Positions 29,769-32,341 of a stretch of DNA of 64,000 nucleotides are shown piece after piece. The stretch's first letter is position 1; every line of letters starts with the position of its first letter. The stretch comes from Leptobrachium leishanense (Eukaryota; Chordata; Amphibia; Anura; Megophryidae). Where the stretch lies: NCBI GenBank assembly GCA_009667805.1, contig CM019070.1, forward strand, positions 53,156,451-53,220,450, in the 5' to 3' direction. The notes below the pieces were generated by a model. The model saw only the letters and a list, made by a program, of their open reading frames with translations, had not been told where the DNA came from and did not search any database. Position numbers and translations under genes: made by a program.

Positions 29769-30460
29769 GGCTTCATTAGGTTTATATGGTAGATCTGTTC
29801 TGCCTTACGTCTACCCGGCTGTCTCACTTTATAGTTTACGTCACTGACCCTCTCAGTGATTTCGTATGGGCCTTGCCAGCTGGCTAGGAATTTTCTTTCA
29901 ACCGTGGGGATAAGGATCAGAACCCGATCTCCTGGTTTGAATACTCGCAGCCTTGCGTACCTGTTGTAACTGGCTTGTTGGGCTTTCTGAGCTTTTTCCA
30001 TATTTTCTTTAACTATGGGCATTACAGCCTCCATCCGTTCTTGCATCTGAACCACATGTTCTATTATACTTCGGTGGGGGGTATGCTCTTGTTCCCATGT
30101 TTCCTTGGCAACATCTAAAATGCCCCTGGGATGCCTGCCGTACAATAATTCAAACGGTGAAAACCCAGTGGAAGACTGTGGGACTTCCCTAATGGAAAAC
30201 ATAAGGTATGGTAATAGATGATCCCAGTTCTTCCCGTCTTTATCTACCACCTTACGCAACATAGCCTTTAGTGTTTTGTTAAACCTCTCCACCAGTACGT
30301 CTGTTTGAGGATGGTACACCGAAGTTTTTAGCTGAGTAATGTTAAGTACTTTACATAACTCACTCATAAGTTTGGACATGAATGGGGTACCCTGGTCTGT
30401 GAGGATCTCTTTTGGTATACCCATCCTGCTAAACATCATTATTAACTCCCTTGCTATATT
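29546..30460 (-). pseudogene. Gmr1-like integrase, N-terminus replaced
   Basis: From about NIARELIMMFSRMGIPKEIL the minus frame carries LTDQGTPFMSKLM (second catalytic Asp), YHPQTDVLVERFNKTLKAML (Glu) and a C-terminal segment FKPGDRVLILIP, SWQGPYEITERVSDVNYKVR. The HHCC region and first Asp, present in the sister element at 48400-48775, are absent. Upstream is the EF-hand segment instead. The frame runs past the natural boundary into RT, where it overlaps the next frame. Confidence 0.9.
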
Positions 30461-30720
30461 CAACAGATTCTTCATCATCTGTGTATTCACCCAAGTATTC
30501 TGCAAGGCTAACAAACCGATCTCCGTCCTTATCATGTTCCTCTAAAGCGCCGTCAATTACAAACTCCAGCACGTGATCCGTTTCTTCTGGATGCTCAAAG
30601 TCAGTAAATTCCATCAGATTTTGCACAGGGGAGCCATCCCTGTCTGCATGATCAAATCTTTTCTTGTCCTTAAAATGAATAAGTCGAAAAGATTCCTCTT
30701 CATCATCTTGAAGCACCATA

Positions 30721-30961
30721 TTTTTTTTTTTTTTTTTTAAATTTTTATTTTGTAAATAAATCAGCTTACAGTTACATATCAAAGTGAGGGTCACTCAAAA
30801 CTGTCATCATAGGTACAGCATAAGGAAAATAATAAACGTCCCCAGATAGGGGGTCTCAGCTGAACATAGCGATCAAAGGGGGGAAGGGGGGAAAAATAAT
30901 AAACGTCCCCAAATAGGGGGTTCTCAGCGGAACATGGCGATCAAGGGGGGGGGGGAAGGGG
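30721..30961 (-). mobile_element. Poly(A)-tailed retroposon of unknown family
   Basis: GAAGCACCATA occurs directly before and after (30710-30720, 30962-30972), an 11-bp target duplication. The left end is a T-run (30721-30738), the tail of a minus-strand insertion. The body is dominated by two copies of a ~60-base unit with AATAATAAACGTCCCC, TAGGGGG and CGATCAA followed by G runs (about 30820-30955). No tRNA-like promoter was recognised. Confidence 0.85.
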
Positions 30962-31017
30962 GAAGCACCATATTTTCATCATAGTCAATGATTCGATCGT
31001 ACATCTGAATATTGTAT

Positions 31018-31658
31018 TAGGGATGTGCATTTCGGGTTTCGGAATTTCGGAATTTTCACGAAATTTCCCGATTCGTGTTTTCGGATGCGGACGATTTTCC
31101 GAAAATTTTTAGATCCGAAAATGGCAGATCCGAAAAGTTTTCCAAGCCGAAACGAAATATTTTCGGAATTTTCGAATGTACTTGAAATGTGTCAAATCGA
31201 AATTTATTGCTTTGAAACGAGAACAGACGTTCCGAAAAATGAAAACTTTCGAAAATACGAAAAGTCGATACAAAAACGAGCTAAGTGACACGAAAATACG
31301 AAAAATGGTCGATATTCCGAAACATTTACAATTACGAAAAACAAAAATTTCCTAAAATACGAAAAGTCGATACAAAAAACGAGCTAAGTGACACAAAAAT
31401 ACGAAAAATGGTCGATATTCCGAAACATATACAATTCCGAAAACCGAACATTTCCGAAAATACGAAAAGTCGATACAAAAACTGAGCTAAGTGACACGAA
31501 AATACGAAAAATGGTCGAAATTTCGAAAAAAAATGTACACGGAAAACGAGTCGAGCCGAACTGAATCGAAACAGAAATCGGTCGAAACGAGCCGAATCGA
31601 AAAGTTCAAAAATCCAAAGAATCGAATCGAACCGAAAAAAAATCGGTGCACAAGCCTA
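31018..31658. mobile_element. hAT-like MITE with ~103-bp internal repeats
   Basis: The ends TAGGGATGTGCA and, inverted, TAGGCTTGTGCA have a perfect 8-bp duplication TATTGTAT outside (31010-31017, 31659-31666). The interior consists of CGAAA/TTTCG words and about 2.5 copies of a ~103-bp unit starting TGACACGAAAATACGAAAAA (31286, 31389, 31492). Noncoding; 60-108 codon frames follow the repeats. It splits the EF-hand segment between YNI and QMY. Confidence 0.88.
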
Positions 31659-31686
31659 TATTGTATTCATCCCAGGAAACGATTCC

Positions 31687-32264
31687 ACTTCTCCCCTCCC
31701 GCTCCCCTCTGCGAGTCCCTTCACTGGCTCCCCATCCACTGCAGAATTAAGTTCAAAATCCTTATCCTTACCTACAAAACCCTCACTAACTCAGCTCCCA
31801 CTACCTGTCCTCACTAATCACCAAATACACCCAGCCCGCTCCCTAAGGTCAAACAGTGACCTGCGCCTAGCTTCTCCCTGCATCACCTCTTCCCATGATA
31901 GACTGCAGGATTTCTCACGCGTAGCCCCCACTCTCTGGAACGCTCTCCCTCGTACTGTCAGACTTTCCCCTAACTTCTCATCCTTCAAACGCTCCCTTAA
32001 AACATTCCTATTTAGGGAAGCCCACCACCCAACTCACTGACGCAACCATCAATCACTCTCACCTTACAGTCCTCTCCTCCTGTTTCCAACCCCAATCCTC
32101 CCAGATTGTGAGTTCCTACGGGAATAGGGCCCTCATCTCCTCCTGTACTGTTTGTCAAATGTTGTTCAATGTTTTGTAACCCTGTCTATACTGTGCTTAT
32201 TGTACAGCGCTGCGGAATATGCTGGCGCTTTATAAATAAAGAATAATAATAAAAATAATAATAA
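31687..32264 (+). mobile_element. L2 LINE 3' fragment with RT C-terminus
   Basis: In + frames it encodes SLHWLPIHCRIKFKILILTY, then RSLRSNSDLRLASPC, APTLWNALPRTVRLSPNFSS and FKRSLKTFLFREA, the C-terminus of L2-clade ORF2. A 3' UTR nearly identical to 14380-14560 follows, ending GGCGCTTTATAAATAAAG and (AAT)n. 5' truncated. It interrupts the EF-hand loop between DKD and GIVSWDE, with about six bases of the target apparently lost. Confidence 0.88.
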
Positions 32265-32341
32265 TCTTTGTCAAATTCAGCAAATTGTTCTTTTGTATCC
32301 TCTAAACTATAATGTCTGAAGGACTTCTGGATCCTTTGGGT

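What the first reader, a model, noticed from the sequence alone, without database searches (positions are those of the whole stretch)
30455..32341. A retrotransposon has captured a cellular EF-hand (reticulocalbin-2-like) coding segment
Seen: between gag and integrase of a Gmr1-like LTR element, about 135 codons of an intronless EF-hand protein are collinear on the element's strand, with no UTR, poly(A) or target duplication of their own. The sister element at 45617-51067 has zinc knuckle, protease and the integrase N-terminus at that place. Known: oncogenic retroviruses gain host sequence by template switching in the same way. Inference: host mRNA was copied into the element during reverse transcription, replacing ~1.5 kb. 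Capture of a CREC-family gene by a Gmr1 element is new to me.
Basis: partly seen in the sequence, partly recalled or inferred. Interest (0 to 1): 0.88.

Follow-up and report, generated by a model that had tools for sequence, protein, structure and literature searches.

The report
Retrotransposon carrying a stolen host gene piece
A retrotransposon in a (likely frog) genome carries a 407-base, intron-free piece of the host's own RCN2 gene in place of about 1.4 kb of its own genes, most likely picked up when its copying enzyme jumped between RNAs at short matching stretches; it is a clear new case of a known kind of gene capture.

Summary
The capture is real and resolved to the base. The parent gene is in the same assembly (C11, ~31.60 Mb; 82% identical to Spea RCN2; ends in HDEL). 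Window 32334-30456 (minus) holds 407 bases of four consecutive RCN2 exons, three GT-AG introns exactly absent (8 differences, 98.0%). They sit in an LTR element with near-identical LTRs (2 substitutions) and a 4-bp target duplication. At that place 17 measurable relatives of 20 fetched carry a median 1389 bp: gag end, protease, front of integrase. Both switch points lie on sequence shared by the two parents: 11 bp at the gag end, 6 bp at the integrase end. Likely mechanism: double template switching during reverse transcription, a process described before. Corrections: most of the 1.9-kb span is three later repeat insertions; no second copy was found, so capture is supported, spread is not; reading frames do not cross the junctions. 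Unexplained: three foreign insertions lie in the 407 captured bases (relatives: one seen in 54 kb compared, a lower bound), and those bases have more changes than the flanks. Both hint at an earlier life of the piece. The 3'-junction count and a wider RCN2 retrocopy search did not complete.

The parts
33124..33644 (-). 5' LTR of the element (sense strand is minus)
   Evidence: TG...CA ends; 2 substitutions, one 3-base and one 1-base gap against the other LTR
27736..28252 (-). 3' LTR
33645..33648 (.). target-site duplication ATGC, one copy
27732..27735 (.). target-site duplication ATGC, other copy; the integrase frame of the interrupted Ty3/gypsy element runs across the empty site for over 20 codons before a stop
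32324..33123 (-). leader and gag (SCAN domain) up to the 5' switch point
   Evidence: Pfam SCAN 1.7e-13; gag matches of relatives end here
32324..32334 (-). 5' switch point, 11 bp GGATCCAGAAG shared by gag and RCN2
   Evidence: 20 of 20 relatives and the parent exon
32264..32334 (-). captured RCN2 exon 'E1', first piece
   Evidence: C11:31606048-31605978, 1 difference
31693..32263 (+). foreign repeat TE3 inside RCN2 (LINE-like 3' end with AATAAT tail, my reading), no duplication
   Evidence: parent bases either side are adjacent; 39 other scored copies at 97-98%
31658..31692 (-). captured RCN2 exon 'E1', second piece
   Evidence: C11:31605977-31605943, identical
31019..31657 (.). foreign repeat TE2 inside RCN2 (hAT-like MITE, my reading), duplication AATACAATAT
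   Evidence: full-length copies elsewhere, best 95%; duplication
30962..31018 (-). captured RCN2 exon 'E1', third piece
   Evidence: C11:31605952-31605896, 1 difference
30725..30961 (-). foreign repeat TE1 inside RCN2 (poly(A)-tailed, LINE-like, my reading), 15-bp duplication AAAATATGGTGCTTC
   Evidence: 99% copies elsewhere; 0 private substitutions in 237 against 29 copies
30681..30724 (-). captured RCN2 exon 'E1', last piece
   Evidence: C11:31605910-31605867, identical
30567..30680 (-). captured RCN2 exon 'E2'
   Evidence: C11:31605534-31605421, 5 differences
30470..30566 (-). captured RCN2 exon 'E3'
   Evidence: C11:31604579-31604483, 1 difference
30456..30469 (-). captured start of RCN2 exon 'E4'
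   Evidence: C11:31603782-31603769, identical
30456..30461 (-). 3' switch point, 6 bp GAATAT shared by RCN2 and integrase
   Evidence: 17 of 17 readable relatives (3 of 20 not readable) and the parent exon
28253..30461 (-). rest of pol: integrase C-terminal half, then reverse transcriptase and RNase H
   Evidence: Pfam rve from profile position 52, Integrase_p58_C, RVT_1, RT_RNaseH

Best explanation
A Gmr1-like LTR retrotransposon (27736-33644, minus) carries 407 bases of spliced RCN2 coding sequence in place of about 1.39 kb of its own gag-protease-integrase region, most likely because reverse transcriptase switched templates twice, at 6-bp and 11-bp stretches that both RNAs share. Likely course (inferred): RCN2 mRNA was packaged with element RNA; minus-strand synthesis ran through RNase H, RT and the integrase C-half, jumped at GAATAT into RCN2 RNA, copied back over three exon junctions, and jumped at GGATCCAGAAG back into gag; the chimeric cDNA kept both LTRs and was integrated, with proteins likely supplied by other copies, into another Ty3/gypsy element with a 4-bp duplication. 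Shown: parent gene, intron removal, both shared stretches, what is replaced, LTRs and target duplication. No fusion product is expected in the present frames (gag meets a stop five codons past the shared stretch; RCN2 and integrase lie in different frames), and the piece looks like neutral cargo (5 amino-acid changes, 3 silent). The piece probably entered an earlier copy, because it has more changes than the flanks and LTRs.
For: Parent gene with introns in the same assembly; RCN2 identity, best hit 82% to Spea bombifrons reticulocalbin-2 and HDEL end; three GT-AG introns exactly missing; shared 11 bp in 20/20 relatives and 6 bp in 17/17 readable relatives, the 11-bp word being as long as any that a 598-base parent stretch shares with the four relatives tested; the 17 measurable relatives of 20 carry a median 1389 bp at the site, in the one examined encoding protease and the integrase zinc-binding domain; complete LTRs and target duplication.
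Against: Microhomology alone cannot tell reverse transcription from DNA repair. Three foreign insertions in 407 bases, against one seen in 54,098 compared bases of 20 relatives, are not explained by a simple one-step capture just before this integration. No earlier chimeric copy was found, though two searches that could have shown one did not complete.
Confidence: 0.86

Rival explanations
1. The last capture took a transcript of an older RCN2 retrocopy that already held some of the foreign repeats, not fresh RCN2 mRNA (still by template switching).
For: 8 changes in 407 bases against 25 private in 4030 flank columns (Fisher p 0.009, computed with 410); all three foreign repeats of this element lie in the RCN2 part; TE3's nearest scored copies are 98%.
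Against: No other RCN2 retrocopy matched the 266-base piece; TE1 has no private change in 237 bases, so at least it is recent; parent-gene changes are among the 8; a search with the wider RCN2 exon stretch did not complete.
Confidence: 0.2
2. The element integrated intact and a later DNA break was repaired with an RCN2 cDNA patch by microhomology, deleting 1.39 kb.
For: Microhomology at both ends also fits end joining; flanks look like an ordinary young family member.
Against: Needs free spliced cDNA at the break; sense orientation, two shared stretches and intact LTR ends all fit reverse transcription without extra steps; RCN2 has more changes than the flanks.
Confidence: 0.08
3. Ordinary LINE-made processed pseudogene inserted into the element.
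For: Spliced host sequence, in a genome with recent poly(A)-tailed repeats.
Against: Both ends lie inside coding exons, no poly(A), no duplication, about 1.39 kb of target lost, shared stretches at both ends.
Confidence: 0.02
4. Assembly chimera.
For: Only one assembly was available and no reads.
Against: The captured copy differs from the parent at 8 sites, lacks its introns and carries repeats with their own duplications, which a misjoin of the parent gene would not give.
Confidence: 0.02

Closest known systems
LTR-mediated retroposition in metazoans (Tan et al. 2016; not held, seen only through passages of PMC5408686 and PMC9674220)
   Same: Host mRNA piece joined to an LTR element by template switching at short shared sequence; reported from fly, mosquito, zebrafish and chicken in those passages
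   Different: Here both switch points, both LTRs, the target duplication, the parent gene and the replaced element genes are resolved in one copy; host likely a frog. I could not compare with the original paper's cases
Bs1 of maize (passages of PMC13317346 and PMC5408686)
   Same: LTR element carrying pieces of host genes within its sequence
   Different: Bs1 holds pieces of three genes and makes a chimeric gene; here one gene, no fusion frame, one copy found
Pxyfem of Plutella xylostella (passages of PMC9674220)
   Same: Partial cDNA of a host gene attributed to LTR-element template switching, 4-base shared sequence at one switch point
   Different: There multicopy, making silencing RNAs; the other side and the LTRs could not be identified
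Oncogene-transducing retroviruses (recalled, no call)
   Same: Host mRNA replaces viral genes, leaving a helper-dependent genome
   Different: No envelope seen or sought here; no product expected from the captured piece

Membership tests
Gmr1-like Ty3/gypsy elements | integrase encoded before reverse transcriptase (feature recalled) | tested here: met
   integrase part in 29546-30541, RT in 28852-29804, RNase H in 28175-28933, minus strand
Gmr1-like Ty3/gypsy elements | SCAN domain in gag (over half of frog Gmr elements, passages of PMC4131045) | tested here: met
   SCAN 1.7e-13 here, 4e-16 in relative L038
Gmr1-like Ty3/gypsy elements | place in an RT tree with Gmr1 | not tested
   no tree built
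Reticulocalbin-2 (CREC family), parent gene | best homology to RCN2 | tested here: met
   82% over 100% to Spea RCN2, E 8.1e-97
Reticulocalbin-2 (CREC family), parent gene | EF hands and C-terminal HDEL | tested here: met
   EF-hand hits over cut-off, HDEL before a stop in a downstream frame
LTR-mediated retroposition | spliced host sequence inside an LTR element | tested here: met
LTR-mediated retroposition | shared sequence at switch points | tested here: met
   11 and 6 bp
LTR-mediated retroposition | no poly(A) or duplication bounding the host piece | tested here: met
LTR-mediated retroposition | chimeric cDNA formed in particles | not testable with these tools
   needs experiment

The most novel reading that the evidence does not exclude
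A helper-dependent, gene-transducing retrotransposon lineage in an amphibian: an earlier chimeric copy carried RCN2 as cargo, gathered mutations and other transposons in that cargo, and was then mobilised again as a whole, so that the repeats hitch-hiked by retrotransposition to the present site.
Probability: 0.35. Interest if true: 0.62.

Novelty: new member of a known kind. Interest (0 to 1): 0.5.

Why it matters
In the one comparable animal case that I read about in passages (Pxyfem), only one switch point could be resolved. Here the donor gene, the recipient family, both switch points and the integration site are all readable, so the template-switch model makes exact, checkable predictions. 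The pile-up of three other repeats in 407 captured bases is a separate puzzle about how such cargo ages.

Tried and rejected
PDB sequence search with the largest captured piece gave six hits up to E 1, the best (E 0.037) to an unrelated protein, the rest EF-hand proteins, no reticulocalbin. Rejected: processed pseudogene; fusion protein (frames do not agree); several copies sharing the gag junction. I first saw 12 of 777 private changes in gag plus leader with 11 relatives; with 20 relatives it is 10 of 784, and gag itself, 7 of 641, lies within the relatives' own 0-8, so I dropped that as an argument; the short leader, 3 of 143, is above the relatives' 0-2. TE2 cannot date its insertion, since a cut-and-paste element brings old sequence with it. 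Literature: 'reticulocalbin'+'retrotransposon' (11 papers listed; judged by title and start of abstract, none on such a capture), capture and template switching, Gmr1. Tan et al. 2016 is not held. Most subscription papers are not in that library. Rfam scan of the window: no match. Never answered: a genome count of the 3' junction and a search with the wider RCN2 exon stretch.

Full report
What was claimed.

The host gene. The window lies at C8:53156451-53220450 of a 3.54-Gb assembly of 4632 contigs. A 266-base piece of the insert (30455-30720, minus) matched itself and three separate places within 1.5 kb on C11, four matches in all. Fetching C11:31596001-31626000 and aligning shows a normal gene: exon 'E1' (captured part 31606048-31605867), intron GT..AG, E2 31605534-31605421, intron, E3 31604579-31604483, intron, E4 from 31603782. 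The exon labels are mine and do not number the whole gene. A 184-residue stretch of its protein found 123 proteins with E up to 0.001; the best is Spea bombifrons RCN2 (82% identity, full coverage), followed by other frogs' RCN2. A downstream frame ends in HDEL and a stop. The organism is therefore likely a frog near the spadefoots (inference). The captured piece on its own gives only weak EF-hand scores (18 bits, under Pfam's cut-off).

The captured piece. It is colinear with the spliced RNA: 407 parent bases, three introns missing exactly, 8 differences (98.0%; summed). Read in the RCN2 frame five change an amino acid (I to S, G to V, L to Q, M to V, G to R) and three are silent, as expected without constraint. 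It begins about 15 bases into the first captured exon, if that exon starts at the AG seen, and stops 14 bases into E4.

The element. LTRs 27736-28252 and 33124-33644 differ by 2 substitutions, one 3-base and one 1-base gap. A 4-bp duplication ATGC flanks them, and the integrase frame of another Ty3/gypsy element runs across the site for over 20 codons, then meets a stop of its own, when one ATGC is counted. Domains in sense order: SCAN gag, captured RCN2, second half of the integrase core (profile from position 52), integrase p58 C-terminal domain, RT, RNase H; integrase before RT is the Gmr1 order (recalled). A stretch that fits a primer site for tRNA-Ala follows the 5' LTR (recalled, not tested).

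What was replaced and how the ends look. A gag piece with the junction found 39 other places at 99-100% over 97-98 bases (40 scored of 209 candidates). Twenty copies were fetched. Their gag matches reach window 32324 (two reach 32323) and, in the 17 that have that stretch, their integrase matches reach 30461, while RCN2 matches run from 32334 to 30456. The overlaps are GGATCCAGAAG (11 bp, 20 of 20 relatives) and GAATAT (6 bp, 17 of 17 readable relatives; 3 not readable). Between the points, 17 of 20 relatives could be measured: median 1389 bp, range 974-2470. In the one relative examined, L038, that region encodes the end of gag, an aspartyl protease (RVP, 1e-5) and the integrase zinc-binding domain (1.3e-20). 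A 598-base parent stretch (the four exons plus some 45 bases of upstream intron) shares two or three words of 11 bases, and none longer, with each of four relatives (about 0.9 expected), so the 11-bp point is among the best available; the 6-bp point is not long.

Copies. Only the window copy spans the gag/RCN2 junction among the 40 scored; the other 39 stop at query base 97 or 98. With this argues for a single copy in the assembly, with the tool's stated limit that counts are lower bounds. The 3' junction count did not complete.

Insertions inside the piece. Parent alignment places three repeats. TE1 30725-30961 has a poly(A) tail and a 15-bp duplication; near copies reach 99% and none of its 237 bases is private against 29 copies. 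TE2 31019-31657 has a 10-bp duplication and hAT-like ends (my reading); best other copy 95% (40 scored of 6188 candidates). TE3 31693-32263 has no duplication; 39 other scored copies at 97-98% (of 2123 candidates). They are not introns: parent bases are adjacent or duplicated at each site.

Order of events. Private substitutions of the window copy against 20 relatives: LTR pieces 2/517 and 2/526, pol 11/2203, gag 7/641, leader 3/143. The relatives measured the same way show similar numbers except that the window's leader value is above their 0-2. RCN2 has 8/407 against its parent; against 25/4030 in the flanks Fisher p is 0.009 (computed with 410). The comparison is imperfect: parent changes count among the 8, and private counts miss shared changes. 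Foreign insertions over 100 bp between matched pieces: one (L028) in 54,098 compared bases of the 20 relatives. That is a lower bound: L024 and L039 had no pol match, L034's gag match breaks at 32502, L029's pol match ends at 29971, and L032 has about 1.1 kb extra in the stretch that was not counted. None lies elsewhere in the window's element, since single matches of relatives run through it, against three in the 407 captured bases. A piece with an older history than the last integration fits both facts, but TE1 is recent, and even a threefold older piece would not be expected to hold three insertions. I leave the cluster unexplained.

Mechanism and rivals. Double template switching by the element's reverse transcriptase explains splicing, sense orientation, internal ends, shared stretches, lost middle and intact LTR ends in one step. 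The resulting copy lacks protease and the front of integrase, so its integration likely needed proteins from other copies. A DNA-repair patch after integration, capture from an older retrocopy, a LINE pseudogene and misassembly are weighed in the rivals.

Known or new. Papers seen in passages describe the same process: LTR-mediated retroposition with microsimilarity-guided switching (PMC5408686), Bs1 (PMC13317346), Pxyfem (PMC9674220); SCAN in frog Gmr elements is from passages of PMC4131045. My searches, judged from listings, showed no RCN2 or Gmr1 case, in a library that lacks most subscription papers. It is a new, unusually complete member of a known kind.

Noticed in passing
30725-32263: Three unrelated repeats lie within 407 captured bases; in 20 relatives one foreign insertion was seen in 54 kb compared (a lower bound). 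Cause unknown.
   Followed up: partly
45617-51067: A second element, 72-82% identical to the first in five aligned stretches; its LTRs are 97.5% identical with 5 mismatches and 8 one-base gaps in 517, which suggests sequencing indels or decay.
   Followed up: partly
22253-27735 and 33645-34699: A plus-strand Ty3/gypsy element interrupted by the chimeric element; its integrase frame runs across the empty site. Outer limits are from open frames only.
   Followed up: partly
L028:916-1535: A relative of TE2 (83%) inserted in the pol region of another family member.
   Followed up: no
4126-4999: Tandem array of a 22-23-bp unit, 38.5 copies, 96% matches, open in all three minus frames over most of its length.
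   Followed up: no
15254-15916 and 42875-43771: Open frames that read like Tc1/mariner transposase fragments (my reading; not searched).
   Followed up: no
38236-42374: Open frames that read like the endonuclease and reverse transcriptase of a non-LTR retrotransposon (my reading; not searched).
   Followed up: no
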